Source: Roseicyclus marinus (lineage in GTDB: Bacteria; Pseudomonadota; Alphaproteobacteria; Rhodobacterales; Rhodobacteraceae). Taken from it: a stretch of DNA of 64,000 bases. Numbering within the stretch: position 1 is the stretch's first letter; each line of letters starts with the position of its first letter. The stretch spans positions 933,001 to 997,000 of the forward strand of contig NZ_AP027266.1 of assembly GCF_036322625.1 (NCBI RefSeq), written 5' to 3'. Under the pieces are notes generated by a model, which did no database searches, had not been told where the DNA came from, and saw only the letters and a program-made list of their open reading frames with translations. Of this stretch, positions 700 through 55,462 are shown piece after piece. Made by a program: the position numbers and the translations under genes.

Positions 700-1917
700 T
701 CAGGCGGAACCTGTCTGCCCGCGCACCCGGTCGCCCTGCCCGCCGCCCCGCGCGGTGCGCAGGATCAGGCGGATATCGGGCAAGATACCCCGCAGCGCCA
801 CGTAATCGGCATCGCGCCGCGCGAGGCGAACAGGATCGCTCATGTCGATCCCCTCGACCTGGGCCAGGCCGCTGATGCCCGGCAGAACGTCGAGCACGCC
901 GCGCTTGCGCCGCTCCTCGACCAGTTCGGTCTGGACGGGCAGGCAGGGGCGGGGGCCGATCAACGCGATCTCGCCGCGCAGGATGTTCCAGACCTGCGGC
1001 AGTTCGTCGATCTTGGTGCGCCTGAGAAAGGCACCGACGCGGGTGACGGAGGCGGCCGAGACCTCATGCGTGCCGGCTTGTGCGGTGCCAAGCTGCATGG
1101 TGCGGAATTTCCAGCAGGTAAAGACCTTGCCATGCCGCCCGACACGCGGTTGCCCGAACAGGCCGGGACCGGGCGAATCACGCCTGACCGCGATCCATGC
1201 CGCCAGAAGCACCCACCAGAACCCCAGAAGGATCGTCAGCGCAAAGGCGTAATCCACAAGCCGCATGGTCGCGCCATAGACGCGGTTGCCCCTCTGCGCC
1301 TCGGTCAGGATCAGGCGATTGTCCTCGCCCGCAGGGGCACCCGAAACCAGATGCGCCGCGATCTTGTCGACCGAGACGGTGGGCCGCAGCGCGGCCAGAG
1401 TGTGGAAGGCAGGGCCGCGCAACACGCGTGGCAGCTTGTTCAGCACCGCGAGCTTGCCCGCGAAGCGGTCGGCCTGCACCGCGGGCAGGTAGAGGATCGA
1501 CACCTCGGTATCCCCGGCCGCGGCAAGAACCGCCTCTGCCCCCCGGCGCTTGCTTTCGGCATAGGGACTGCGATTGCTCGCGTCGAGCGCATCGATCGAG
1601 GAGACATAGACGAAGCGCGCGATCCCCGCCTCTTGCGCGGCGCGCAGTTGCGTCAGGGCCAGATCGACATTCACCGCGTCGAATTCGGCCTGCGGGCCGG
1701 GCCGGTCGTTGTTGCGGGCGGCAAGGTGCACCATGAGGTCGGCCCCGGTTGCATGCTGTGCCATGGCATCCGGGGCGCAGCAGGACAGGCCGGGAAAGAG
1801 CTGTGCCAGCTTCTCCGGGTCCCGGCCGATCAAGACCGGATCGATCCCTGCGGTTTGCAGACGGGGCACGACGTGCCGCCCGACGAAACCCGACGCGCCG
1901 GTGATCACGATCTTCAT
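700..1917 (-). CDS. Hybrid nucleotide-sugar epimerase / undecaprenyl-phosphate sugar transferase
   Basis: This 405-residue protein joins two usually separate enzymes. Residues 1 to about 210 are an extended-SDR Rossmann domain with GASGFVG at 7-13 and the YAESK catalytic Tyr/Lys at 119-123. It is shorter than free-standing epimerases of about 310 residues. One hydrophobic segment (about 219-245) follows, then a bacterial sugar-transferase domain with the family landmarks CWKFRTM (269-274), LRRTKIDELPQVWN (298-311) and GPRPCLPVQ (321-329). The second half should transfer a sugar phosphate from a UDP-sugar to undecaprenyl phosphate at the inner membrane, starting a repeat unit; the first half may prepare or hold that UDP-sugar. 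It overlaps the upstream dehydratase gene by ATGA, suggesting translational coupling. Confidence 0.85.
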   Translation of the reverse strand: MKIVITGASGFVGRHVVPRLQTAGIDPVLIGRDPEKLAQLFPGLSCCAPDAMAQHATGADLMVHLAARNNDRPGPQAEFDAVNVDLALTQLRAAQEAGIARFVYVSSIDALDASNRSPYAESKRRGAEAVLAAAGDTEVSILYLPAVQADRFAGKLAVLNKLPRVLRGPAFHTLAALRPTVSVDKIAAHLVSGAPAGEDNRLILTEAQRGNRVYGATMRLVDYAFALTILLGFWWVLLAAWIAVRRDSPGPGLFGQPRVGRHGKVFTCWKFRTMQLGTAQAGTHEVSAASVTRVGAFLRRTKIDELPQVWNILRGEIALIGPRPCLPVQTELVEERRKRGVLDVLPGISGLAQVEGIDMSDPVRLARRDADYVALRGILPDIRLILRTARGGGQGDRVRGQTGSA

Positions 1918-3887
1918 GCGACATCCGCCGGGTCGAGGGATGCGGCATCCCCCGCAACGGGGTCCGTGCCGGGGGCGGGCGCGTAGCCTGTCCCCGCTTG
2001 CCGCAGCAAGCTTTGCACCGTTTTCAGGTCCTCGTCGGCAGTCGCGCGATCGAGGGCGTCGAGAAGCGGCACAAGCTCAGGCATCGGCAGGAAGCCTTCT
2101 TGTGCGGTCATGATCTTGGGATGCGCCGTTGCGCGGGCATCGGCCCCGATCAGCAATTCCTCGTATAGCTTCTCACCCGGGCGCAGGCCCGTGATCTTGA
2201 TCGTGATGTCGCCCTCGCCCCCGGGGTCCCCCTCAAGGCGCGGACGCAGGCCCGACAGCGACGCCATGCGCTGTGCCAGATCGAGAATGCGGACCGGTTG
2301 ACCCATGTCGAGCAAGAAGACATCGCCGCCCTGCGCCATGGCGCTCGACTGGATCACCAGCTGCGCCGCCTCGGGAATGGACATGAAATAGCGCGTGATC
2401 TCGGGATGGGTCACGGTGATCGGTCCGCCCGCCTCGATCTGGCTGCGGAAAAGCGGGATGACCGATCCCGACGAGCCAAGAACGTTGCCAAAGCGCACCA
2501 TGGAGATACGGGTGCCGGAGGCGGTCTCGGCATAGGCTTGGCAGACCATTTCCGCCAGGCGCTTGGACGCCCCCATGATGTTGGTCGGGCGCACGGCCTT
2601 GTCCGTCGAGATCAGCGTGAAGGATTGGACCTGCGTGGCGATCGCGGCCTCCAGCACTGTTTTCGTGCCGAAGACGTTGTTGCGCATCCCCTCGGCGATG
2701 TTGTCCTCGACCAGGGGCACATGCTTGTAGGCGGCGGCGTGGAACACCGTTCCGACGTTATGCTGCGCCATGGTATCGCGCAGGCGCCGCGCGGATTGGA
2801 CGGATCCCAGAACCGCATGAAGCCGCGTGGGGCGCGGCAAGACCTTGGTCAGCGCCAAGAGCTCCATCTGGATCGTGTAGAGCGCGGGTTCCGAATGCTC
2901 GAACAGGATCAGGTCGCTCGGGCCCTCTCGCAGGATCTGTCGGCACAATTCGCTGCCGATCGATCCGCCTGCACCCGTCACCATCACGACCTTGCCGCGA
3001 ATGTTGGCCGACATCAGGTCGGGAACAGGCGCCACGGGGTCGCGCCCCAGAAGATCCTCCGCCGACACGTCGACGATATCCGATGTGCTGGCGCGACCGG
3101 TGATGATGTCGTCCATGTTGGGGACGGTGCGGACCCTGACGCCGAATTCGGCGAGCTGCTCGATGATCTCGCGCCGCCGCGATCTTTGGGCACGCGGCAT
3201 GGCCAGAAGCGCAAGCTCCACCCCGAAATTCTCGATCAGGCCGGGCATGTCCTGCGGCCCGATCACGCGCAGACCGTTCACCTCGTTGCCATGCAGGGCG
3301 GGGTTGTCATCGACGATGGCGAGCGGCAGGTAATCATTCCCGCGCAGAAGCGAGGCGACAAGTTGTTGTCCCGAGGTGCCGGCCCCGTAGACCAGCACGG
3401 GCGTCAGACCCTGCCGCAATTCGCGGCGGAACAATTCGCGCAGCAAGAACCGCAATCCCCCGACCGAGATCAGCGCGAGCATGGCGTAGATGCCCGGAAC
3501 CGACCGCGGCACCCCAAGCGACAGCCCTTGCGACACGACGAACAAGAAGACCGCCGACACGGCGATCCCGCGCGCGATGGTGACGAAGGCGCGCGACGAG
3601 ATATAGCGGATCACGGCCCGATAGAATCCGGTCACCGCGAACAGCAAGATGGTGACGGGAAGCGTCATCCCAATGGCAATCCAGATGCGTGGGTCGGGCA
3701 GGAAAAAGAAACTGTCGTAGCGCAATCCCATAGCGAGGATGAAGCTGCCCACCAGCAGCACGCAATCCGCCGCCACCTGCAAGATCCGCTTGTTCAGGCG
3801 CGACAGGGACAAAAGCCGCGCCAATCCGCGCTGCGCGGAGGGTTTCCGCAATCGTCGGGTTTGGCGTGTCGGCATCGGATTGATCAC
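1914..3887 (-). CDS. FlaA1/CapD-type nucleotide-sugar 4,6-dehydratase, membrane-anchored
   Basis: A 657-residue polysaccharide-biosynthesis protein of the CapD/WbpM class. The N-terminus has about four membrane segments (roughly residues 38-55, 68-88, 105-125 and 133-150). A first nucleotide-binding fold (VLVYGAGTSG, 164-173) follows, then the SDR catalytic half with VTGAGGSIGSE (303-313), the AAAYKHVPLVE motif and ISTDKAV; WbpM-class enzymes use Met/Thr-Asp-Lys instead of Tyr-Lys. It likely converts UDP-GlcNAc to a 4-keto-6-deoxy sugar for an exported glycan. The first M at 3887 is used; MPTRQT four codons later is equally possible. It is coupled to the sugar-transferase fusion downstream. 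A 284-bp divergent gap separates it from the glycosyltransferase at 4172; I see no convincing named site in that gap. Confidence 0.88.
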   Translation of the reverse strand: MINPMPTRQTRRLRKPSAQRGLARLLSLSRLNKRILQVAADCVLLVGSFILAMGLRYDSFFFLPDPRIWIAIGMTLPVTILLFAVTGFYRAVIRYISSRAFVTIARGIAVSAVFLFVVSQGLSLGVPRSVPGIYAMLALISVGGLRFLLRELFRRELRQGLTPVLVYGAGTSGQQLVASLLRGNDYLPLAIVDDNPALHGNEVNGLRVIGPQDMPGLIENFGVELALLAMPRAQRSRRREIIEQLAEFGVRVRTVPNMDDIITGRASTSDIVDVSAEDLLGRDPVAPVPDLMSANIRGKVVMVTGAGGSIGSELCRQILREGPSDLILFEHSEPALYTIQMELLALTKVLPRPTRLHAVLGSVQSARRLRDTMAQHNVGTVFHAAAYKHVPLVEDNIAEGMRNNVFGTKTVLEAAIATQVQSFTLISTDKAVRPTNIMGASKRLAEMVCQAYAETASGTRISMVRFGNVLGSSGSVIPLFRSQIEAGGPITVTHPEITRYFMSIPEAAQLVIQSSAMAQGGDVFLLDMGQPVRILDLAQRMASLSGLRPRLEGDPGGEGDITIKITGLRPGEKLYEELLIGADARATAHPKIMTAQEGFLPMPELVPLLDALDRATADEDLKTVQSLLRQAGTGYAPAPGTDPVAGDAASLDPADVA

Positions 3888-4171
3888 CCTGATGTCAGCG
3901 AGCGGTCATGTCCGGCACAAGGTCCCGAGACCGATTTGCAAAGACCGACACGATGACTCGAAAGGATATTTTTCGCGCGTCGGATAGCTTGGTAATGCCG
4001 GGAGTTTCGCCGCACCGCAAGGCGAAACGCGGTCGCGGCGCTGCCGTCGCGGCACTTGGCCAAGGGGAGCAAGGCGATAAGGGGCCTCACCGCAACCTTT
4101 GCGCGGTTGTCCTGCCCTCGGGCAGCCCCACATTGACACGCGCAACAGATCCACCCTGCCCGGAGCTCCAG

Positions 4172-5251
4172 ATGACCCGCCCCAAAGCCGCATTTGCCAT
4201 TCCCGGCGATCTCGCGACCTTGACGGGCGGGTATATCTACGACCGCCGCCTCTTGTCGGAACTGCGCGCCGATGGCCGTGACGTGGCCCATGTCGGTCTC
4301 GGGGCTTCCTTTCCCGATCCCACGCCCGCGGATATGGCGGATGCGGCCCGCAGGTTGTCGCGCTTCGGGCCCGATTGCCCGGTGATGATCGACGGGCTGG
4401 CGATGGGGGCGATGGAGCTGTCTGTCCTGACCGGCATGGCGGCACCCATCGTGGCGCTCGTACATCATCCGCTTGCCCATGAAAGCGGCCTTGCCCCCGC
4501 GATGCGCGACCGGCTTTACCGCAGCGAACGCGACAATCTCGCGCTCGCGGCCCATGTCGTTGTGCCAAGCCCGCATACCGCCGCCTTGCTCGTGTCGGAT
4601 TATGGCGTCACGGCCGATCGCATCACCATCGCCCGACCGGGCACCGACCGCCCCATGGGGCGGGTGGCGAAAGCCGATCCGCCCCTGATCCTGTCGGTCG
4701 GCATCCAGGTGCCGCGCAAGGGGCATGACGTGCTGATCCGGGCGCTGGCGCAGCTGCGCGACCTCCGCTGGCAGGCTGTGATCGTGGGATCGGCGCTCGA
4801 TGCCGAACATGCCGCTTTTTTGGCCCGGTTGGTGACCGACCTTGACCTCTCCTCGAAAGTCCGGCTGGTCGGCCGCGTCTCGGGGGAGGAGCTGGCGCGG
4901 CTCTATGGTCAGGCAAGCCTTTTTGCGCTCGCGACCCGCTACGAGGGCTACGGCATCGTCTTTGACGAGGCCATGGTTCACGGCCTGCCCATCGTCACAT
5001 GTGCGACGGGGGCGGTTCCCGATACGGTTGCCCCGCAGGCGGGGCTTTTGGTTCCGCCCGATGATCCCGACGCCTTTGCGCAGGCCCTTGCAACGGTTCT
5101 CGAGGATGACGCCACGCGCGGGCGGATGGCGGATGCTGCGACGGCGGCGGGCGCGGCCCTGCCCGGTTGGGCGGCGACCGCGCGCTCGGTGGGGGAGGTA
5201 TTCGACCGCGTCTCCGCCCGCGCGCAAAAGGCGGTCGCGGCACGGCGTTGA
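4172..5251 (+). CDS. Family 4 glycosyltransferase (GT-B fold)
   Basis: A 359-residue GT4 enzyme. The start is set at ATG 4172 because GGAG sits six bases before it and the protein then begins with a typical N-terminal Rossmann strand (KAAFAIPGDLATLTGGYIYDRRL). The donor-binding half carries ILSVGIQVPRKGHDVLIRAL and the E-x7-E signature region YEGYGIVFDEAMVHGLPIV. It transfers a sugar from an activated donor to an unknown acceptor. On one side is a glycan locus, but it runs away from that locus and toward five genes of pterin/flavin-like chemistry. I infer that it glycosylates the product of that pathway; a role in the exopolysaccharide is the alternative. A 213-bp gap separates it from the next gene, so co-transcription is likely but not certain. 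Confidence 0.85.
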   Translation: MTRPKAAFAIPGDLATLTGGYIYDRRLLSELRADGRDVAHVGLGASFPDPTPADMADAARRLSRFGPDCPVMIDGLAMGAMELSVLTGMAAPIVALVHHPLAHESGLAPAMRDRLYRSERDNLALAAHVVVPSPHTAALLVSDYGVTADRITIARPGTDRPMGRVAKADPPLILSVGIQVPRKGHDVLIRALAQLRDLRWQAVIVGSALDAEHAAFLARLVTDLDLSSKVRLVGRVSGEELARLYGQASLFALATRYEGYGIVFDEAMVHGLPIVTCATGAVPDTVAPQAGLLVPPDDPDAFAQALATVLEDDATRGRMADAATAAGAALPGWAATARSVGEVFDRVSARAQKAVAARR

Positions 5252-5464
5252 ACCCTCGGGGGATCGGGGGCGCCTGCGCGCCCTCGCGAGAATGTGATCC
5301 TGCTGGCCAAGGGGCTCTCGGCCCGCCAGACAAGCCCCGGCGCGGCTTTCTCGAGGTGCAGAACTCCGAACCCTGTCTGCAGGCGATTTCCTCGTGCCAT
5401 CGCGGGCTTGCCGGAACGGCATTCGCCCTAGATTTTCAAATTCGACGGAAAAAACAGGATCACC

Positions 5465-6631
5465 ATGCCGACCAGCCCAGCCGCAAAGGTCGGGTCCGCC
5501 CCTGCTGCGGTCCCGCACCGACCCCCGGAGCCGCCTGCACCCTCGCTCGCGCCGGCAGGTGTCGAGCAGTTGCGCAGGCTTCAGGGCGATCTTGCCGTAG
5601 GCCTGCCGATTGTCCTGCGCCATGACGGGGCCGCGGTTCTGGTGGCGCTCGTCGAATCCCTGACACAGGCGCGTTACAGCGCCATGACGGATCTTGGCAC
5701 GCCCGAACTGGTCGTGACGCGGCGCCGCGCCGTGGCGCTGGGCGCGCAGCCCCCGGGGCAGGGCGACACGTTGCGGTTCCGCCTGCCGCCGGGGGCGGAT
5801 CTTGGCTGGGTTGCCGCCGTCGCGGGCCGATCCGGGCCGCAGGACGGCGACCTGGGGGGCGGATTGCCCATACTTCAGACCGGATCGGCGCTGCATCGGG
5901 CCATGCTCGACATCGCCAAATCCATCCATGTCCTTCCGGCCGCGCTTGCCGTGCCCCTCTCGGTCGAGACCGAGGCCGTCATTGCCGATCTTGGTCTTTC
6001 CACCATGCCGCTTGCGCGTGTCCTGCCGGCGCTCGAGGAGGCGCGCAGCCAGACCTGCGTCAGCTCGGCCCAGCTGCCGATGGATGTCTCCTCCTCCGGG
6101 CATGTACATGTCTTTCGCCCCGATGCCGGTGGGCCGGATCATTACGCCATCGAGGTGGGCACGCCCGACCTGTCGGGCCCGGTCCTTGTGCGGCTCCATT
6201 CCGCCTGTTTCACGGGCGATGTGCTGGGCAGCCTGAAATGCGATTGCGGGCCGCAATTGCGCGCCGCCATGGCCGCGATGGCCGAGGCGGGGGGCGGCGT
6301 GCTGATCTATCTCAACCAGGAGGGGCGGGGGATCGGACTGGCCAACAAAATGCGCGCTTATGCGCTGCAGGATGCGGGTCTCGACACGGTCGAGGCCAAT
6401 CATTGGCTGGGGTTCGAGGATGACCAGCGAGATTTCCGCATCGGGGCGCAGATCCTGGGCCGGATGGGCATCGACCGGGTGCGCCTGATGACGAACAATC
6501 CTGCCAAGATGGCCAGCCTGTCGGCGCTGGGCGTCACGGTGGTGGACCGCGTGCCGCTGCGCGTGGGCAAAACCGCGCAGAACGCCCATTACCTTGCCAC
6601 CAAGGCCGCGAAATCGGGGCATCTGTTGTGA
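5465..6631 (+). CDS. ribA: GTP cyclohydrolase II
   Basis: 388 residues. The C-terminal half is canonical GTP cyclohydrolase II: RLHSACFTGD with zinc cysteines C248, C259 and C261, the catalytic loop NQEGRGIGL (284-292) and TNNPAKM (343-349). It opens the imidazole ring of GTP, giving the diaminopyrimidine ribosyl phosphate plus formate and pyrophosphate. Residues 1-210 form a long proline-rich lead and a divergent domain lacking obvious RibB catalytic motifs, as in other alphaproteobacterial RibA proteins. The start at 5465 follows AGGA. It overlaps the next gene by GTGA. It could be the housekeeping RibA or a pathway-specific copy. No other riboflavin gene is next to it, which favours use in the local pathway, though that cannot be settled from this window. 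Confidence 0.92.
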   Translation: MPTSPAAKVGSAPAAVPHRPPEPPAPSLAPAGVEQLRRLQGDLAVGLPIVLRHDGAAVLVALVESLTQARYSAMTDLGTPELVVTRRRAVALGAQPPGQGDTLRFRLPPGADLGWVAAVAGRSGPQDGDLGGGLPILQTGSALHRAMLDIAKSIHVLPAALAVPLSVETEAVIADLGLSTMPLARVLPALEEARSQTCVSSAQLPMDVSSSGHVHVFRPDAGGPDHYAIEVGTPDLSGPVLVRLHSACFTGDVLGSLKCDCGPQLRAAMAAMAEAGGGVLIYLNQEGRGIGLANKMRAYALQDAGLDTVEANHWLGFEDDQRDFRIGAQILGRMGIDRVRLMTNNPAKMASLSALGVTVVDRVPLRVGKTAQNAHYLATKAAKSGHLL

Positions 6632-7596
6632 CCCATGCGCCTGCCCTTTGGTGTGTCGGTCCGGGTCGGGCCGAACTGCGCCCCGGCGCGCTGGGCGAGG
6701 GCGTGACCGTCGACATGCTTTACACCGGCATCAGCCGGGGCACCGAGCGTCTGGTGTTCGAGGGCCGGGTGCCGGACAGCGAAACGGACCGGATGCGCGG
6801 CCCCGCGATGGAGGGGGATTTCCCCTTTCCGGTCAAATACGGCTATTGCGCCGTGGGCCGCGTGGCCGAGGGCGCGCTGGCCGGGCGCGCGGTCTTTGCG
6901 CTCCATCCCCACCAGGCGCGCTTTCGCCTGCCGCAATCGGCGCTGACACTCCTGCCCGAGGATCTGCCGCCCGGCCGCGCCGTTCTGGCCGCCAACATGG
7001 AAACCGCGCTGACGCTTTTGTGGGACAGCGGCGCGGGGGCAGGGGACCGGATTGCCGTGATCGGTGCGGGCGTTCTGGGGGCCCTGACCGCCTATCTTGC
7101 CGCCCGCCTGCCGGGGGCCGAGGTGACGTTGGTCGATACCAATCATGACCGCGCCGCGCTGGCCGCGCCATTGGGCTGCGGCTTTGCCGCGCCGGACACC
7201 GTGCCAGGGGATTGCGACGTGGTCTTTCACCTCTCGGCCAGTGCCGCGGGTCTTGCCACCGCCATCGCCAGCGCAGGGCCCGAAGCCGTGGTGCTGGAGG
7301 GCAGCTGGTACGGGGCGGGGACCACGCAAGTGCCCCTTGGCGGGGCGTTTCACAGCCGCCGCCTGCGGATTGTCGGCTCGCAGGTGGGTCAGATCCCGCC
7401 TGCGCGCGCGCCCCGCTGGACCCATGCCCGCCGCCTTGCCAAGGCGCTGGAGCTTTTGACCGATCCCGCGCTTGATGTGCTGATCTCGGGCGAAACCGCC
7501 TTTGCCGATCTGCCCGCGCGCTATGGTGCGATCCTGTCGGACCCTGCCACCTTGTGCCACCGCATCCGCTACGATGCCCCCCAAGACGCCCTTTGA
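6628..7596 (+). CDS. MDR-superfamily dehydrogenase, BchC-like, without the usual zinc ligands
   Basis: 322 residues of the medium-chain dehydrogenase/reductase superfamily. It starts with GTG at 6628, overlapping the ribA stop. The N-terminal GroES-like part has GISRGTERLVFEGRVP (34-49) and PVKYGYCAVGRV (68-79). It resembles bacteriochlorophyllide dehydrogenase BchC more than classical alcohol dehydrogenases: the Cys and the GHE triad that hold catalytic zinc are not seen. The cofactor fold is intact (AVIGAGVLGALTAYL, 143-157), followed by an acidic strand end (LVDTN) expected for NAD(H). It probably oxidises or reduces an alcohol/ketone side chain of the pathway intermediate. The substrate is unknown. 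Nine bases separate it from the next gene. Confidence 0.78.
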   Translation: MTHAPALWCVGPGRAELRPGALGEGVTVDMLYTGISRGTERLVFEGRVPDSETDRMRGPAMEGDFPFPVKYGYCAVGRVAEGALAGRAVFALHPHQARFRLPQSALTLLPEDLPPGRAVLAANMETALTLLWDSGAGAGDRIAVIGAGVLGALTAYLAARLPGAEVTLVDTNHDRAALAAPLGCGFAAPDTVPGDCDVVFHLSASAAGLATAIASAGPEAVVLEGSWYGAGTTQVPLGGAFHSRRLRIVGSQVGQIPPARAPRWTHARRLAKALELLTDPALDVLISGETAFADLPARYGAILSDPATLCHRIRYDAPQDAL

Positions 7597-7605
7597 GGAG
7601 AGACC

Positions 7606-8001
7606 ATGTTTGCCGTCGAAGTCCGCGATCACATCATGATCGGCCATTCCCTTCCCTCGCCCGTTTTCGGCCCCGCCCAGGGGCTGCACGGCGCGACCTT
7701 CACGGTCGATGCGGCCTTCTTCACGCAGGATATCGATGATCACGGGCTGGTGGTCGACATCGGCCTCGCGACCGAGGCGCTGGCCGAGACGCTTGCCCCC
7801 CTGCGCTACAAGAACCTCGACGAGGTGCCGGAATTCGCGGGGAAATTCACCACCACCGAATTCCTCTGCGGCCATATCTTTGCCGCCATGGCCGAGCGCG
7901 TGCGCGCCGGAAAGCTCGGCGATGGCGGGCGGGTGCGCAAGCTGCGCATCACGCTGCACGAAAGCCATGTCGCCCGCGCCTGGTACGAGGCGGAGATCTG
8001 A
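7606..8001 (+). CDS. 6-pyruvoyltetrahydropterin synthase/QueD-fold protein with altered active site
   Basis: 131 residues, the normal length for PTPS/6-carboxytetrahydropterin synthase, with GAGGAG upstream of ATG 7606. The fold signature is visible: an N-terminal strand and H14, LHGATF (27-32) where the family has LHGHxY/F, the TTTE segment (82-85) and the C-terminal HESHVARAWYE with the pterin-anchoring Glu (E119). Compared by eye with E. coli QueD, the catalytic Cys position is Ala (A24), the third zinc His is Ala (A30) and the Asp-His pair is replaced by Arg-Tyr (around R67-Y68). It should still bind a pterin- or pyrimidine-like ring but is unlikely to run the textbook reaction. Position in the operon suggests it acts on the product of ribA or the neighbouring dehydrogenase. 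Confidence 0.75.
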   Translation: MFAVEVRDHIMIGHSLPSPVFGPAQGLHGATFTVDAAFFTQDIDDHGLVVDIGLATEALAETLAPLRYKNLDEVPEFAGKFTTTEFLCGHIFAAMAERVRAGKLGDGGRVRKLRITLHESHVARAWYEAEI

Positions 8002-8004
8002 TCC

Positions 8005-8793
8005 ATGGGCTTTTCCGCCGAATGGCTTGCGCTGCGCGACCCCGCCGACCGGGCGGCGCGCGATGCTGTGCTGGCCCGGCGGGCGGCGCGGGCGGCGGGA
8101 CCTGCGCCTCTGATCGTCGATCTGGGCGCTGGCACCGGGGCGACATGGCGGGCGCTTTCGCCGCTTTTGCCCCCGGGCGCGCGCTGGCGCTTTGTCGACA
8201 ATGACCCGGCGCTCTTGTCCATCGCGGCTGCGGCAGCGGGCGAGGGGGCGGAGACCGTGATCGCCGATCTGGCCGATCTCGAGGCTCTGCCGCTAGCCGG
8301 TGCCACGCTTGTCACGGCCTCTGCCCTGCTCGATCTGGTCTCGGCCGATTGGGTGGCGGGGCTGGTCGCGCGGCTCGGGGTGCCGTTTTACGCGGCCCTG
8401 AGCTATGATGGGCGGATGGACTGGACCCCGAAAGATCCGCGCGATGCCGCGATCACGGCGGCCTTCAACCGTCACCAGACGGGGGACAAGGGGCTTGGCC
8501 CCGCTTTGGGTCCGGATGCCGCCGATCACGCCGCCCGCGCCTTCGAGGCGGCGGGCTTCACCGTCACGCTGGCCGACAGCCCCTGGCTGCTTGGCCCCGA
8601 GATGGCCGCCCTTCAGCGTGATCTGTGCGACGGCATCGCGGCGGCTGCCGCTGAAACGGGCCTTGGCGATGCCGCCGATTGGGGCCGGGCGCGGCGCGAG
8701 ACCGCCGCCCTGTCGCGCTGCATGATCGGGCATCTCGACATTCTCGCCCTGCCGCCCGTCCCGCCACCGGAGATTGCCCATGTGCAGCATTGA
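8005..8793 (+). CDS. Class I SAM-dependent methyltransferase
   Basis: 262 residues. The N-terminal third holds the SAM-binding loop VDLGAGTGA (38-46) and an acidic motif II (RFVDNDPALL). A conserved-looking substrate region follows (FYAALSYDGRMDWTPKDPRD). It methylates a small molecule rather than DNA: there is no DPPY-type motif. Only three bases separate it from the PTPS-like gene and its end overlaps the RibD-like gene, so it belongs to the same transcript. By analogy with the toxoflavin pathway, where a methyltransferase acts after GTP cyclohydrolase II and RibD-like enzymes, N- or O-methylation of a pyrimidine or pterin intermediate is a reasonable guess, but nothing in the protein names the acceptor. 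Confidence 0.82.
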   Translation: MGFSAEWLALRDPADRAARDAVLARRAARAAGPAPLIVDLGAGTGATWRALSPLLPPGARWRFVDNDPALLSIAAAAAGEGAETVIADLADLEALPLAGATLVTASALLDLVSADWVAGLVARLGVPFYAALSYDGRMDWTPKDPRDAAITAAFNRHQTGDKGLGPALGPDAADHAARAFEAAGFTVTLADSPWLLGPEMAALQRDLCDGIAAAAAETGLGDAADWGRARRETAALSRCMIGHLDILALPPVPPPEIAHVQH

Positions 8794-9607
8794 CGTGACC
8801 CCCCGCGTCTGGGAGCGCCTCTTGGCCGTGCGCCAGGGGCTTGCCTGCGCCTGCTGCGGGCGGTGGAGCGCGGGCGAACGCGCGGCGCTTGCGCTGTACG
8901 GCCCGCTTGCCCGCCGCGATCTGGGGCCTGTCACCGTGGCGCAGATCGGCCAATCGCTCGACGGGCGCGTGGCCACCGTCACGGGCGATGCGCGCGACGT
9001 GTCGGGGCCCGATGGGCTTGCGCATCTGCACCGCATCCGCGCGCTGGTCGACGGGGTTGTGATCGGTGTGCGCACAGCGCTTCATGATACGCCGCGCCTG
9101 ACCGTGCGGCTCTGCCCCGGCCAGAACCCCGCCCGCATCGTCATCGATCCGCAGGGCCGCTTGCCCGATGATGCGCCGGTGCTCACCGATGACGGGGCGC
9201 GGCGCATCGTGGTTCAGGCGGTGGAAAAGCCCCGTCCCGCAGGCGTCACCGTGATCCGGCTCCGGCCCCGCGACGGGCAGCTTGACCCTGCCGAAATCCT
9301 TGTTGCGCTGCATGCCGAGGGATTCACGTCGCTTCTGGTCGAGGGCGGCTCGATCACCATCGCGCGGTTTCTCGAGGCGGGGCTTCTGACCCGGCTGCAG
9401 GTCGCCATCGCGCCGCTTCTGATCGGGGGCGGCCCGCAGGGTCTGACGCTTCCCAGCCCCACGGCGCGGCTGGCCGAGGCGATCCGCCCCGACATGCGGG
9501 TCTTTTCACTGGGCTCGGATGTCGTTTTCGATTGCGGCCTCACGCCCGAGGCGATGAGCGCCACCGAACCGCTGCATCTGCAATCGGAACGGCTGTCGCG
9601 GGCCTGA
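8780..9607 (+). CDS. RibD C-terminal-domain reductase (dihydrofolate-reductase-like), no deaminase domain
   Basis: 275 residues from ATG 8780, chosen because GGAG lies seven bases before it; an in-frame TTG at 8774 is the alternative. Both overlap the methyltransferase stop. Residues 50-250 match the pyrimidine reductase half of RibD: AQIGQSLDGRVA (54-65), DGVVIGVRTALHDTPRLTVR (91-110), SLLVEGGSITIARFL (184-198) and VAIAPLLIGGG (208-218). It would reduce a ribose or ring carbonyl with NAD(P)H. The cytidine-deaminase-like half of RibD is absent. Instead there is a short N-terminal piece with cysteines C2, C23, C25 and C26, perhaps a metal site. It ends convergent with the importer genes, 26 bp away. 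Confidence 0.82.
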   Translation: MCSIDVTPRVWERLLAVRQGLACACCGRWSAGERAALALYGPLARRDLGPVTVAQIGQSLDGRVATVTGDARDVSGPDGLAHLHRIRALVDGVVIGVRTALHDTPRLTVRLCPGQNPARIVIDPQGRLPDDAPVLTDDGARRIVVQAVEKPRPAGVTVIRLRPRDGQLDPAEILVALHAEGFTSLLVEGGSITIARFLEAGLLTRLQVAIAPLLIGGGPQGLTLPSPTARLAEAIRPDMRVFSLGSDVVFDCGLTPEAMSATEPLHLQSERLSRA

Positions 9608-40110: not shown

Positions 40111-40776
40111 ATGATCGATGCACTTGTGATAGGGGCTTCGGGCGGCATCGGCCGCGCCGTGGCCGATGAAATGCGTGCCCGGGGCGGCCGCGTGACCACG
40201 CTCTCCCGGGCGGCGGATGGGTTGGACGTGACGGATGCGGACAGCGTCGCGCGCGTGATGGGCGGGCTCGAGGGACCGTTTCAGACAATCTTCATCTCGG
40301 TCGGCATCCTTGCCCCCGATGGGGCCGCACCTGAAAAACAACTCTCCGCCATCGATCCCGCCACGATGGCCCGCGTCTTTGCCGTGAACACGATCGGGGT
40401 TGCTCATCTCATCAGCTATCTGCCGCGCCTGTTGCCCAAGCGCGGGCGCTCGGTCACGGGGGTTCTGACGGCGCGCGTCGGCTCCATCGGGGACAACCGG
40501 ATCGGCGGCTGGCATTCCTATCGTGCCTCCAAGGCGGCGCTGAACCAGATCGTGCATGGCGCGGCCATCGAATTGGGACGCAGCCATCGCGAGGCGGTGA
40601 TCGCAGCGCTGCACCCCGGCACGGTCGCCACCTCCTTTACCCAAGGTTACGATCCCAAGCATGGCAAGGTCACACCCGAGGATGCCGCGCGCAACCTGTG
40701 TGACGTGATGGAGAGCCTGACACAGGCGCAATCGGGCGGTTTCTACGATTATGCCGGAACGGAAATACCATGGTAG
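40111..40776 (+). CDS. Short-chain dehydrogenase/reductase (CsgA-like) next to the photolyase
   Basis: 221 residues from ATG 40111. The dinucleotide motif is VIGASGGIGRAV (5-16). Serine sits in LTARVGSIGDNRIGGW and the catalytic Tyr-x3-Lys in YRASKAALNQ. The protein lacks obvious substrate-specific motifs; similar small SDRs are found beside PhrB-type photolyases in other alphaproteobacteria as I recall. It overlaps the photolyase gene by seven bases, so they are translated together. A role in making or recycling a chromophore or handling redox for the repair enzyme is a guess. Confidence 0.82.
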   Translation: MIDALVIGASGGIGRAVADEMRARGGRVTTLSRAADGLDVTDADSVARVMGGLEGPFQTIFISVGILAPDGAAPEKQLSAIDPATMARVFAVNTIGVAHLISYLPRLLPKRGRSVTGVLTARVGSIGDNRIGGWHSYRASKAALNQIVHGAAIELGRSHREAVIAALHPGTVATSFTQGYDPKHGKVTPEDAARNLCDVMESLTQAQSGGFYDYAGTEIPW

Positions 40777-42299
40777 GTCGCCTGATCCTGATCCTGGGCG
40801 ATCAGCTGTCCGATGATCTTTCGGCGCTCCGCGAAGCCGACCCGGCCCGCGACACGATCGTCATGGCCGAAGTCATGGGAGAGGCGGCATACGTTCCCCA
40901 TCACCCCAAGAAAATCGCCTTTCTCTTTGCCGCGATGCGCAAATTCGCCGCCCGGCTCGAGGGGCAGGGCTGGCGCGTGCTCTACACCCGCCTCGACGAT
41001 CCCGAGAACACGCAAAGCATCCCCGGCGAGCTGATCCGCCGTGCCTCTGAAACCGGCGCGGTCGAGGTTCTGGCCACCGAACCGGGCGAATTCCGTCTCA
41101 TCGCGGCACTCGAGGATTGCCCGATCCCCGTCCATCTCTTTCCCGATGACCGTTTCCTGTGTTCCCACGCCGAATTCGACGCCTGGGCCGAGGGGCGCAA
41201 GGAATTGCGGATGGAATGGTTCTACCGCGAGATGCGGCGCAAGACAGGCCTCTTGATGCAGGGCGACAAGCCCGAGGGGGGCAAGTGGAACTACGACCAC
41301 GACAACCGCAAACCGGCACCGGGTGAGATCACCTTTGACGGCCCGATGCGCTTTGCCCCTGACGAGACGGTCGAAGAGGTTCTGGCGCTTGTCGAGGAAC
41401 GCTTCGCCGGGAATTTCGGCACGCTGCGCCCCTTCTGGTTCGCCACCGACCGGGATGGGGCGGTGGCGGCGCTTGGCCATTTCATCGCCAACGCCCTGCC
41501 GCGCTTTGGCGATTACCAGGATGCGATGCTCGACGAGAACAGGTTCCTCTACCATTCCGTTATCTCGATGTATCTGAACGCCGGGCTTTTGCATTGGCGC
41601 GAGATCTGCGCGGCGGCCGAAGCGGCCTACAGGGCCAATGAGGCGCCGCTGAACGCGGTCGAGGGGTTCATCCGCCAGATCATCGGCTGGCGTGAATACA
41701 TGCGCGGCATCTATTTCCACGAAGGCCCCGGCTACACGTCGATGAACGCGCTGGGCCATGACCGCAAGCTGCCGGATTTCTACTGGACCGGCGATACCGA
41801 CATGCGCTGCCTCTCGCGCGCCATCGAACAGACCCGCGACGAGGCTTATGCCCATCACATCCAGCGCCTGATGATCACCGGCAATTTCGCGCTGCTGGCG
41901 GGCATCGACCCGCACCAGGTGCATGAATGGTACCTGGCCGTCTATGCCGATGCCTTTGAATGGGTCGAGGCCCCGAATGTCATCGGGATGAGCCAGTTCG
42001 CCGATGGCGGGATCGTGGGCTCCAAGCCCTATGTCTCGGGTGGCAACTACATCCACAAAATGTCGGATTATTGCAAGAAATGCGCCTATGAGATTGGGGA
42101 TAAGTCTGGGGATAAAGCGTGTCCCTACAATTATCTGTACTGGGCCTTCCTGTATCGCCACCGCGAAAATTTTGGCCGAAACCCCCGCATGGCGCAGATG
42201 TACCGCACCTGGATGCGGATGTCGGAGGACAAGCGCAAGGCGACGCTCGACAGTGCCGAAGCCTTTCTTGGCCGGCTTGATCGCGGTGCGCGCGTCTAA
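40770..42299 (+). CDS. phrB: Iron-sulfur bacterial cryptochrome/(6-4) photolyase, PhrB/CryB type
   Basis: 509 residues. The N-terminal antenna domain opens LILILGDQLSDDL, and the C-terminal FAD domain carries the FeS-BCP hallmarks: cluster cysteines at 347, 435, 438 and 451 (CLSRAIE; CKKCAYE; KACPYNYLYW), matching the spacing in Agrobacterium PhrB. HHIQRLMITGNFALLAG supplies the conserved helix near FAD. Characterised members repair (6-4) photoproducts or act in blue-light signalling, with 6,7-dimethyl-8-ribityllumazine as antenna. That compound comes from the riboflavin pathway, so GTP cyclohydrolase II feeds it in principle. It is cotranslated with the SDR gene. Confidence 0.94.
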   Translation: MVGRLILILGDQLSDDLSALREADPARDTIVMAEVMGEAAYVPHHPKKIAFLFAAMRKFAARLEGQGWRVLYTRLDDPENTQSIPGELIRRASETGAVEVLATEPGEFRLIAALEDCPIPVHLFPDDRFLCSHAEFDAWAEGRKELRMEWFYREMRRKTGLLMQGDKPEGGKWNYDHDNRKPAPGEITFDGPMRFAPDETVEEVLALVEERFAGNFGTLRPFWFATDRDGAVAALGHFIANALPRFGDYQDAMLDENRFLYHSVISMYLNAGLLHWREICAAAEAAYRANEAPLNAVEGFIRQIIGWREYMRGIYFHEGPGYTSMNALGHDRKLPDFYWTGDTDMRCLSRAIEQTRDEAYAHHIQRLMITGNFALLAGIDPHQVHEWYLAVYADAFEWVEAPNVIGMSQFADGGIVGSKPYVSGGNYIHKMSDYCKKCAYEIGDKSGDKACPYNYLYWAFLYRHRENFGRNPRMAQMYRTWMRMSEDKRKATLDSAEAFLGRLDRGARV

Positions 42300-54335: not shown

Positions 54336-55193
54336 TTAGTGCATGACTGGCCTTCGGTCCATCGGGACGATGGTTTCCGGGGCCGGCGGGCGGTAGCCCA
54401 GGGCACTGTGGGGTCGCTTGGTGTTGTAGTGCCTCCTCCATTGTTCGATCAGGATTTGTGCCTCGCGGAGGCTGTAGAAGACTTCGCCGTTGAGCAGTTC
54501 GTCGCGGAACCTGGCGTTGAAGCTCTCGCAGTAGCCGTTCTCCCATGGTGACCCTGGTTCGATGTAGGCTGTCCGGGCGCCGACCGCGCTGATCCAATCG
54601 CGGACGGCTTGGGCCACAAACTCCGGGCCGTTGTCTGACCGGATGTACGCTGGCACGCCCCGCATGATGAACAGGTCGCTCAGCGCATCGATCACGTCAC
54701 CTGAGTTCAGCTTGCGCTTTGTCTTGATCGCCAGACACTCGCGGCTGTGTTCATCCAGGATGTTGAGCGTCCTGAAGACCTTCCCATCCTCCGTGCGGCA
54801 ATGCACGAAATCATAGCTCCAGACGTGGTCCCGATACTCCGGTCGCAGCCGGACGCAAGACCCGTCGTTCAGCCAGAGCCGCCCCTTCTTCGGTTGCTGC
54901 ATTGGCACCTTAAGCCCCTCTCGCCGCCACAGGCGTTCGACGCGTTTGTCGTTCACCTCCCATCCCGCATCTCTCAGCAGGGACGCGATCCGACGATAGC
55001 CGTAGCGACCAAACTGACGCGCCAGCTCGATCATGTCCGCGACCAGTTGCACCTCATCGGCGCGACCCTGCGGCAGCTTCCGCTGCGTGGAGCGGTGTTG
55101 GCCCAGGACGCGACAAGCCCGGCGCTCAGAGATCGCGAACGTGCTGCGAGCATGCTCAATGCAAGCACGGCGACGAGCGGGGCTCAGAAGTTT
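54336..55193 (-). CDS. IS3-family transposase OrfB (DDE integrase-like), made by frameshift
   Basis: Open from 55193 in the -1 frame relative to OrfA, about 285 residues. It includes an HTH_21 region (ARQFGRYGYRRIASLLRDAGW) and the DDE catalytic core: Asp in WSYDFVHCRTEDGK, Asp in IRSDNGPEFVA, Glu in WENGYCESFNARFRDELL. A GGGGAAAC-type slippery run near 55193 would allow a programmed -1 shift to give the OrfAB transposase. The frame is intact, so the element may still be active. Confidence 0.88.
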   Translation of the reverse strand, partial: KLLSPARRRACIEHARSTFAISERRACRVLGQHRSTQRKLPQGRADEVQLVADMIELARQFGRYGYRRIASLLRDAGWEVNDKRVERLWRREGLKVPMQQPKKGRLWLNDGSCVRLRPEYRDHVWSYDFVHCRTEDGKVFRTLNILDEHSRECLAIKTKRKLNSGDVIDALSDLFIMRGVPAYIRSDNGPEFVAQAVRDWISAVGARTAYIEPGSPWENGYCESFNARFRDELLNGEVFYSLREAQILIEQWRRHYNTKRPHSALGYRPPAPETIVPMDRRPVMH

Positions 55194-55462
55194 CCCCGTG
55201 CCGCCTCCGCCAAGATCAACTTGTCCAGCGTCAGATCTGACACGGCTTTCCGTAACCGTTCATTCTCTTTCTGGAGGCGCTTGAGTTCCTTCAGTTGGTC
55301 TGTTCCCATACCGCCGTATTGCTTGCGCCAGCGGTAGTAGGTCTGCTCGGTAATGCGAACCTCGCGGATCGCGTCCACCCGTGCCATGCCTTGCCCGACA
55401 AGCACCTCAACCTGCCGCAGCTTTGTGACAATCTCTTCCGGCTTGTGCCGCTTCGTAGCCAT
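55184..55462 (-). CDS. IS3-family transposase OrfA
   Basis: 92 residues (MATKRHKPEEIVTKLRQVEVLVGQG). A helix-turn-helix of the transposase_8 type (ITEQTYYRWRKQYGGM) is followed by a leucine-zipper stretch (LKELKRLQKENERLRKAVSDL). It binds the ends of the element and, alone, usually regulates transposition. It overlaps OrfB. Confidence 0.9.
   Translation of the reverse strand: MATKRHKPEEIVTKLRQVEVLVGQGMARVDAIREVRITEQTYYRWRKQYGGMGTDQLKELKRLQKENERLRKAVSDLTLDKLILAEAARGNF

What the first reader, a model, noticed from the sequence alone, without database searches (positions are those of the whole stretch)
4172..9607. Six-gene cluster suggesting an undescribed glycosylated, methylated pyrimidine or pterin pathway
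A GT4 glycosyltransferase is followed in one direction by GTP cyclohydrolase II, a BchC-like dehydrogenase, a PTPS/QueD homologue, a methyltransferase and a RibD-C reductase, with starts and stops overlapping or within nine bases from ribA onward. Known pathways combine some of these (toxoflavin: GTP cyclohydrolase II, RibD-like and methyltransferase; pterin glycosides: PTPS, reductase and glycosyltransferase). I know of none with all six. No other riboflavin or queuosine gene is present. Inference: GTP ring opening, reduction or rearrangement on the PTPS fold, methylation and sugar transfer give a secreted or cofactor-like small molecule.
Basis: partly seen in the sequence, partly recalled or inferred. 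Interest (0 to 1): 0.78.

Follow-up and report, generated by a model that had tools for sequence, protein, structure and literature searches.

The report
Conserved GTP-to-pteridine-like small-molecule gene cluster
Six neighbouring genes in a bacterium belong to a conserved, patchily inherited pathway that appears to open GTP and turn it into a methylated, sugar-bearing, probably exported small molecule that has not been identified; it matters because it would be a new branch off the riboflavin and pterin pathways.

Summary
The six genes are real and run on one strand (4172-9607): GT4 glycosyltransferase, GTP cyclohydrolase II, BchC-like dehydrogenase, PTPS homologue, methyltransferase, RibD-C-only reductase. 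The PTPS is of the PTPS-IV subfamily (invariant FGPAQ; catalytic Cys, one Zn His and the Asp-His pair replaced). Dehydrogenase, PTPS, methyltransferase and RibD-C occur in exactly the same 14 of 148 order-mates and together in 56 of 57 relatives' loci of at least 20 kb: a dedicated accessory unit. RibA and GT4 are less fixed. A riboflavin operon and another RibA lie elsewhere. Relatives add CDP-alcohol phosphotransferase, flippase-like, sulfatase-fold and IMPase genes; this genome holds the first three together 1.07 Mb away. Streptomyces-type loci carry a Met-type RibA beside a creatininase-family gene (7 of 7); the Tyr-type loci examined lack it, pointing to the ring-opened pyrimidine APy as entry compound. 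The F420 role claimed for PTPS-IV is not supported (cofH in 0 of 14 carriers). PTPS-IV beside PF00925 and RibD-C was published in 2017; the full pathway and product I found nowhere. Best reading: GTP -> APy -> ribityl form -> methylated, glycosylated pteridine or pyrimidine, exported via a phospholipid module. Chemistry after APy is inference.

The parts
4172..5251 (+). GT4-family glycosyltransferase (359 aa; the ORF opens at 3908 but homology starts at 4172)
   Evidence: 12 of the 13 relatives in A8 are 40-79% identical, Streptomyces 32%; a GT4 relative of at least 60 bits lies in 53 of 80 PTPS-IV loci; nearest solved structures are Tll1590 and MshA/PimB-type GT4 enzymes, with tetrahydrobiopterin glucosyltransferase 5ze7 a distant hit, 4.5e-11
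5252..5464 (.). 213-base gap where near relatives (L004-L006) carry an inositol-monophosphatase-family gene; no remnant found here
   Evidence: best IMPase relative elsewhere in the genome is 49% identical, C1:2452163
5465..6631 (+). RibA, GTP cyclohydrolase II with Tyr at the product-determining site; a second copy besides a RibA at C1:269456-270547
   Evidence: the other copy is 54% identical
6628..7596 (+). BchC-like medium-chain dehydrogenase (GISRGTE motif; relatives are annotated 'zinc-binding alcohol dehydrogenase')
   Evidence: model pLDDT 90.9 whose nearest folds include polyol dehydrogenases
7606..8001 (+). PTPS-IV subfamily T-fold protein (FGPAQ), degenerate PTPS/QueD catalytic site, conserved C-terminal Glu
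   Evidence: SCO6650, PDB 3d7j, E 1.6e-53
8005..8793 (+). Class I SAM-dependent methyltransferase of a family with no close solved relative
   Evidence: (pLDDT 96.0)
8780..9607 (+). RibD C-terminal-type reductase without deaminase domain; nearest solved relatives are archaeal reductases of the riboflavin pathway

Best explanation
The six genes are the cytoplasmic half of a dedicated, horizontally mobile biosynthetic pathway (the PTPS-IV pathway). RibA opens GTP to 2,5-diamino-6-ribosylamino-4(3H)-pyrimidinone 5'-phosphate (APy). The RibD-C protein, lacking a deaminase partner, reduces the ribosyl to a ribityl chain while the 2-amino group stays, as in archaea. The BchC-like dehydrogenase and the PTPS-IV protein then remodel this intermediate, most simply by oxidising a ribityl hydroxyl to a ketone that condenses with the 5-amino group to close a pterin ring. 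The methyltransferase and GT4 enzyme decorate it. A module found beside the cluster in relatives and 1.07 Mb away in this genome (CDP-alcohol phosphotransferase, flippase-like LPG_synthase_TM protein, sulfatase-fold protein, cytochrome b561) links the product or its sugar to a phospholipid and moves it to the outer face of the membrane. Shown: gene content, conservation, co-occurrence, residue patterns. Inferred: every reaction after APy, and export. My rough odds: dedicated unit 0.97; entry at APy 0.8; reduction before deamination 0.7; membrane module belongs 0.7; product carries a sugar 0.65; intramolecular pterin ring closure 0.25.
For: Same 14 of 148 genomes for PTPS, RibD-C, ADH and MT. 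ADH 57, MT 57, RibD-C 56 of 57 loci of at least 20 kb. RibA: zinc cysteines and Tyr105 equivalent; separate RibA and riboflavin operon. In a 23-row RibA tree the two housekeeping RibAs included fall among the Rhodobacterales cluster RibAs, while Rhizobiales-type and Streptomyces cluster RibAs form distant clades, compatible with repeated recruitment. Met-type RibA with a neighbouring creatininase in 7 of 7 Streptomyces-type loci; no creatininase in the ORFs of L001-L089, which hold 37 of the 40 Tyr loci, nor in L125 or L136. RibD-C profile best hits 6p8c and 2azn, with the RibD Lys replaced by Gln (14 of 15) or His (1 of 15). ADH model nearest to MDR enzymes, several of them polyol dehydrogenases, TarJ among them. 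CDP-AP motif DxxDGxx(A/S)R..G...D...D in 17 of 17. Own-genome CDP-AP, sulfatase-fold, flippase-like and cyt b561 genes in one run. No relative of this genome's RibB domain or RibH in the ORFs of 112 loci and the window other than its own riboflavin operon, so no four-carbon donor of that kind is encoded nearby, which favours intramolecular closure.
Against: The seven Streptomyces-type loci are close kin (creatininases 79-84% identical to that of L094), not seven independent cases, and that enzyme scores nearer MftE and creatininase models than ArfB (141 and 99.7 bits against 37; none above cut-off). Streptomyces-type loci, L099, L132, L134 and L077 show no RibD-C in the stretch held. PTPS-IV also stands without the other genes on a Streptomyces plasmid (L095; the similar L096 lacks the strict motif). 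The dehydrogenase lacks the usual zinc ligands (my reading), which in MDR enzymes often means C=C reduction rather than alcohol oxidation. The GT4 is closer to MshA/PimB than to pteridine glycosyltransferases. The RibA tree has unresolved forks, a long-branch warning and no housekeeping RibA from Rhizobiales or Streptomyces. If pterin is the goal, GTP cyclohydrolase I would be the shorter route.
Confidence: 0.55

Rival explanations
1. The cluster makes a non-pterin analogue: an 8-ribityl lumazine/flavin-like or still monocyclic diaminopyrimidine glycoside, for example an antenna or redox pigment, with PTPS-IV only as binder or condensing enzyme.
For: RibA and RibD-C are riboflavin-branch enzymes; PTPS-IV has lost the PTPS catalytic residues; a photolyase-related DPRP gene lies 31 kb away in the window.
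Against: No relative of this genome's RibB domain or RibH in the cluster loci, and no relative of the DPRP gene in them. A monocyclic product is not touched by this.
Confidence: 0.2
2. The pathway makes a head group for envelope glycans: the small molecule is linked to phospholipid, flipped, and moved by the sulfatase-fold enzyme onto osmoregulated periplasmic glucans (OpgGH).
For: A GT2 family that clusters with a gene annotated mdoH lies in 20 of 89 loci; in this genome opgG (PF04349, 9.1e-148) and an opgH-like gene sit next to the cyt b561, CDP-AP, sulfatase-fold and flippase-like genes. Known OPG substituents are moved by alkaline-phosphatase-superfamily enzymes (recalled).
Against: Actinobacterial loci keep CDP-AP and the flippase-like gene (and L125 the sulfatase-fold gene) in bacteria without periplasmic glucans of this kind (recalled). 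The background rate of opgH in such windows was not measured, and several of the 20 loci share one arrangement by descent.
Confidence: 0.2
3. PTPS-IV works in coenzyme F420 synthesis, as stated from unpublished work for archaea (PMC5041015), and the cluster feeds FO/F420.
For: Statement read in PMC5041015; F420 shares the ribityl-pyrimidine precursor (recalled).
Against: CofH in 1 of 148 genomes and in none of the 14 carriers; the same model rings in 6 of 14 control genomes, over the cut-off in 3.
Confidence: 0.03
4. A toxoflavin-like azapteridine pathway (RibA-like, RibD-like and methyltransferase).
Against: Toxoflavin clusters have no PTPS, MDR dehydrogenase, GT4 or CDP-AP (recalled); ToxC and ToxD were not searched for here.
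Confidence: 0.04
5. Redundant housekeeping genes: extra riboflavin supply plus a QueD for queuosine.
For: Automatic annotation names the PTPS 6-carboxytetrahydropterin synthase in relatives.
Against: CxxxHGH absent, FGPAQ present; 28 bits against a QueD cut-off of 89; separate RibA and riboflavin operon; presence in only 14 of 148 genomes.
Confidence: 0.02

Closest known systems
PTPS-IV gene neighbourhood (cluster-node 62 of the AGeNNT study, PMC5445326; PTPS-IV in PMC5041015)
   Same: FGPAQ signature; neighbours PF00925 and PF01872. This is the same family and part of the same neighbourhood.
   Different: That paper names PF00925 GTP cyclohydrolase I/FolE2 in the passages I read, whereas Pfam calls it GTP cyclohydrolase II. 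The passages read do not give the dehydrogenase, methyltransferase, GT4, CDP-AP, flippase, co-occurrence test or a pathway.
SCO6650/SCO6655 of Streptomyces coelicolor
   Same: SCO6650 (PDB 3d7j) is the closest solved PTPS-IV; SCO6655 is a GTP cyclohydrolase II reported to stop at the formylated product FAPy because of a Met (recalled; only the title seen, in a reference list).
   Different: The window RibA has the canonical Tyr; RibD-C is in the cluster; organism and gene order differ from the Streptomyces-type loci seen. The S. coelicolor locus itself was not fetched by name.
Archaeal riboflavin steps (APy reductase; ArfB deformylase)
   Same: RibD-C without deaminase whose best solved relatives are 6p8c and 2azn; in Streptomyces-type loci a creatininase-family enzyme beside a Met-type RibA takes ArfB's place in the order of steps (inference).
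   Different: Reductase under the TIGR01508 cut-off (97 of 186 bits); Gln, not Asn, at the RibD Lys site; creatininase far under the ArfB cut-off.
Pteridine glycosides and their glycosyltransferases (BGluT, PgtA, CtPGT)
   Same: GT4/GT-B-type transferase beside a PTPS-family protein; glycosylated pterin is the natural analogy (PMC3546692 and PMC5683033, passages read).
   Different: Most biological pterins start from GTP cyclohydrolase I (PMC13259868, passages read); I know of none from GTP cyclohydrolase II. The window GT4 is nearer MshA and PimB.

Membership tests
PTPS-IV subfamily | FGPAQ signature in place of CxxxHGH | tested here: met
   F21-G-P-A-Q25 invariant in 27 of 27; signature named in PMC5445326
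PTPS-I / QueD | CxxxHGH motif, catalytic Cys and Asp-His pair, three Zn His | tested here: not met
   no Cys in the motif, second His of HGH is Ala30, Asp-His is Arg-Tyr when aligned with 1b66; 28 bits against cut-off 89.25
GTP cyclohydrolase II (RibA) | three zinc Cys and Tyr105 for the APy product | tested here: met
   aligned with E. coli 2bz0; NF001591 241.9 bits against 148, TIGR00505 214.6 against 205.85
Bifunctional RibD | N-terminal deaminase domain | tested here: not met
   only RibD_C found, residues 55-222 of 277; the genome's other RibD has both domains
Archaeal APy reductase | reductase of undeaminated APy: family score, and Asn where RibD has Lys | tested here: inconclusive
   best solved relatives 6p8c and 2azn but 97 of 186 bits on TIGR01508; Gln at the site
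BchC | TIGR01202 equivalog score | tested here: not met
   35.3 of 291.25 bits
Pteridine glycosyltransferase | specific kinship with BGluT, PgtA or CtPGT | tested here: inconclusive
   5ze7 is a distant hit (4.5e-11, last of the 60 shown of 69) behind MshA/PimB types
F420 biosynthesis | FO synthase CofH in the same genome | tested here: not met
   0 of 14 carriers
Riboflavin operon | co-located ribB, ribH and bifunctional ribD | tested here: not met
   this genome's riboflavin operon is at C1:2.62-2.63 Mb; no RibB-domain or RibH relative in the cluster loci
Toxoflavin cluster | ToxC and ToxD beside ToxA, ToxB, ToxE | not tested
   no search made

The most novel reading that the evidence does not exclude
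A GTP-cyclohydrolase-I-independent route to pterins: RibA makes APy, RibD-C makes the ribityl chain, the BchC-like dehydrogenase oxidises its C2' hydroxyl to a ketone (together equal to the Amadori step of GTP cyclohydrolase I), and PTPS-IV closes the pterin ring on the 5-amino group. The methylated, glycosylated dihydropterin is attached to a phospholipid by the CDP-alcohol phosphotransferase and flipped out, giving a membrane-anchored, outward-facing redox or light-active pterin that could exchange electrons with the cytochrome b561.
Probability: 0.17. Interest if true: 0.85.

Novelty: new variant of a known kind. Interest (0 to 1): 0.62.

Why it matters
PTPS-IV is a subfamily of hundreds of sequences (561 in the PMC5445326 cluster; 465 confirmed before the limit) with a solved structure and no function established that I could find, annotated as a queuosine enzyme in the records seen. 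A fixed partner set, an entry metabolite deduced from two different enzyme solutions in two phyla, and a phospholipid/flippase module turn an open annotation question into a small number of decisive experiments. If the product is a pterin, it would be the first I know of made from a GTP cyclohydrolase II product, and possibly the first lipid-linked one.

Tried and rejected
F420 role: rejected by cofH absence in all 14 carriers. Queuosine/folate PTPS: rejected by motif and score. Toxoflavin: argued from recall only. IMPase remnant in the 5252-5464 gap: short matches only. A crude FolE motif scan is uninformative and not used, so nearby FolE is untested. Two RibA motif scans missed their target (one search read the wrong column for the switch residue; one search printed nothing); one search is the one used, and L129 and L131, which the motif could not see, were read by eye. 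One search finds only RibAs that fit its motif, so some loci with RibA (for example L005, L060) are not in its 40. Fold search of the methyltransferase gave only distant class I enzymes (10-20% identity in the 50 rows shown), so it does not tell O-, N- or C-methylation. Paper searches showed (by listing) no paper describing the full cluster; led to the papers used. The library holds open-licence papers only. Papers: PMC5445326, PMC5041015, PMC13259868, PMC5683033, PMC3546692, PMC3509567 - passages only; all others listings or recalled. The Met/FAPy result for SCO6655 and the SCO6650 structure paper are recalled; neither text was held.

Rows left out of counts: one search counts the 80 related-loci loci only (not L001-L003, L084-L089) and needs at least 60 bits, so GT4 and FkbM counts may include unrelated members of those large families. 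In one search, 26 of 396 genomes matched; I fetched wide stretches for 9 of them including the centre G148, left G176 (fragment), and took the 16 weak matches (E 1.6e-19 to 6.7e-16) for other PTPS types without checking their surroundings. families: I ran Pfam on a member of those seen in 10 or more loci and on some rarer ones; most families of 6 or fewer loci are unannotated.
Full report
OBSERVATION. The six ORFs are present as described. From ribA to the RibD-C gene they overlap or are separated by 3 to 9 bases; GT4 lies 213 bases upstream. The window is G000:C1:933001-997000 of a 3.55-Mb single-contig genome. The nearest locus fetched is of Roseicyclus marinus (L004; PTPS 98% identical).

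A DEDICATED UNIT. Of these 80, ADH is present in 78, MT in 79, RibD-C in 76, a GT4 relative in 53, IMPase in 52, FkbM methyltransferase in 49, RibA in 40, CDP-alcohol phosphotransferase (CDP-AP) in 38, sulfatase-fold protein in 35, flippase-like LPG_synthase_TM protein in 30, cytochrome b561 in 21; all six window genes together in 26. In the 57 loci of at least 20 kb the first three are 57, 57 and 56. PTPS-MT-RibD-C is the common order in Rhodobacterales, with ADH upstream of PTPS in most and downstream of RibD-C in a second arrangement (L051, L055, L060 and others). ADH-PTPS-GT4-MT is the order in Rhizobiales, Methylosinus, Thiodictyon and several Actinomycetota. Independently of synteny, profiles of PTPS, RibD-C, ADH and MT hit exactly the same 14 of 148 genomes of the order, in 11 of 72 genera, at the cut-offs used. 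The sample was not corrected for phylogeny, but four identical presence lists in a patchy distribution leave little room for chance. In one of the 14 (G140) RibD-C lies 361 kb from PTPS, so co-occurrence is not just linkage.

NOT HOUSEKEEPING. The genome has another RibA (C1:269456, 54% identical) and, at C1:2.62-2.63 Mb, RibH, a RibBA-type protein, a lumazine-binding-domain protein (RibE type) and a RibD with deaminase and reductase domains. The PTPS is the only PF01242 match of the genome.

THE PTPS IS PTPS-IV. Twenty-seven homologues share invariant FGPAQ, HGAT, TTTE and ESH blocks. Against solved PTPS enzymes the second His of HGH is replaced by Ala and the Asp-His pair by another residue and Tyr (Arg-Tyr in the window); the motif has no Cys. 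The closest solved protein is SCO6650 of Streptomyces coelicolor, 3d7j (1.6e-53); its paper is recalled as reporting no zinc, no catalytic triad and no PTPS activity. PTPS-IV is named by FGPAQ in PMC5445326, which also saw PF00925 and RibD_C next to it. PMC5041015 mentions unpublished work tying PTPS-IV to F420 in archaea. CofH is present in 1 of 148 genomes and in none of the 14 carriers, so that role does not carry over.

THE ENTRY COMPOUND. Window RibA aligns with E. coli GTP cyclohydrolase II 2bz0 with its zinc cysteines and with Tyr at chain position 105. Spoonamore et al. 2006 (recalled abstract; title seen) found that SCO6655, with Met there, stops at the formylated FAPy. By motif, Tyr is found in 40 loci (three of them copies of the window gene, two with only a housekeeping RibA: L002 and L089) and Met in one, L094. 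Six more actinobacterial loci (L126-L131) also carry Met. All seven have a creatininase-family gene next to RibA. The ORFs of L001-L089 have none, nor do L125 and L136, whose RibAs have Tyr. The creatininase family contains the archaeal FAPy deformylase ArfB, though this protein scores nearer MftE. Seven related loci are not seven events, but two enzyme solutions leading to one compound, APy, is the simplest reading. In a tree of 23 RibA sequences the two housekeeping RibAs included lie among the Rhodobacterales cluster RibAs in an unresolved fan; the four Rhizobiales-type sequences (three plasmid loci and the order-mate G081) form one clade (100/100) within the larger group, and the Streptomyces ones another (100/99), with a long-branch warning. 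This is compatible with repeated recruitment but does not prove it.

THE REDUCTASE. RibD-C lacks the deaminase domain. Its profile is closest to two archaeal reductases, 6p8c and 2azn (2.3e-39, 1.8e-37), ahead of RibD-type proteins at 3e-29 and weaker. Where the three RibD-type sequences shown carry Lys before the SLDG motif and the two archaeal ones Asn, this family carries Gln in 14 of 15 and His in 1. Reduction of undeaminated APy is the inference.

LATER STEPS. The ADH has a GISRGTE motif in the stretch (residues 24-83) that matches the BchC profile, no recognisable zinc-site residues, and a confident model (pLDDT 90.9) whose nearest solved folds are MDR enzymes, among them idonate, butanediol, sorbitol, xylitol and ribulose-5-phosphate (TarJ) dehydrogenases or reductases, but also acryloyl-CoA and quinone reductases. 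BchC oxidises a secondary alcohol to a ketone (established knowledge, recalled). If the ADH oxidised C2' of the ribityl chain, the ketone would condense with the 5-amino group and give a 6-trihydroxypropyl-7,8-dihydropterin, the skeleton GTP cyclohydrolase I makes through an Amadori shift. No carbon donor is then needed; no relative of this genome's RibB domain or RibH is found in the ORFs of the cluster loci. This is the boldest reading and is untested. The MT (pLDDT 96.0) has no close solved relative. The GT4 is nearest to Tll1590, MshA and PimB types; BH4 glucosyltransferase is a distant relative.

THE MEMBRANE HALF. CDP-AP proteins of 17 clusters keep the catalytic motif, with Ala replaced by Ser in one. 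CDP-AP and a flippase-like protein accompany ADH, PTPS, GT4 and MT in Actinomycetota too. A joined query found CDP-AP (60%) and flippase-like (59%) genes of this genome at C1:2008288 and 2010630 (the stop reported in the first lies past the end of an intact 252-residue ORF). The fetched stretch shows EEP, opgG, opgH-like, cytochrome b561, CDP-AP, sulfatase-fold and flippase-like genes in a row (L146), at L146 5599-9575 for the last four. The cluster IMPase is missing between GT4 and ribA; the best IMPase elsewhere is 49% identical to that of L006, whereas the IMPases of L004-L006 are 78-81% identical to that of L084. Cluster IMPases of the second arrangement are also only about 48-54% identical to L084's, so whether the 49% gene serves the pathway is open. 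An opgH-like family lies in 20 of 89 loci, an unexplained recurring neighbour.

VERDICT.

Noticed in passing
window 40770-42299 (+): Photolyase-related DPRP-family gene (PF04244, 1.3e-80) about 31 kb from the cluster; relatives use a riboflavin-branch lumazine antenna (recalled). No relative of it in the cluster loci held, so no link shown.
   Followed up: partly
L022, L034, L042: Clusters 76-81% identical at PTPS sit in genomes labelled Aquiluna or Micrococcales, whereas Streptomyces plasmid versions are 44-54%. L034 lies on a 748-kb contig of a 1.5-Mb genome; L022 is a 6-kb contig and could be contamination. This suggests recent transfer from alphaproteobacteria.
   Followed up: partly
L138 (G000:C1:2618000-2632000): The RibBA-type protein of the riboflavin operon has a GTP cyclohydrolase II half without the zinc-binding cysteines (my reading), so the separate RibA at C1:269456 is probably the working one.
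   Followed up: partly
L095, L096: PTPS-IV (L095) and a PTPS-IV-like gene without the strict motif (L096) stand alone on Streptomyces plasmids beside cupin, MBL-fold and MEKHLA-domain genes, a different setting for the family.
   Followed up: no
L146 2415-5566 and 20 of 89 cluster loci: Periplasmic-glucan genes (opgG, opgH-like) recur beside the cluster or its membrane half.
   Followed up: partly
PMC5445326, section on PTPS: PF00925 is called GTP cyclohydrolase I/FolE2 there; Pfam describes it as GTP cyclohydrolase II, which changes the inferred pathway from folate to the riboflavin branch.
   Followed up: yes
window 700-3887 (-): Sugar-transferase fusion and a polysaccharide-biosynthesis dehydratase directly upstream, divergent from GT4.
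   Followed up: no
window 54336-55462 (-): IS3-type transposase pair (rve and HTH_Tnp_1 domains).
   Followed up: no
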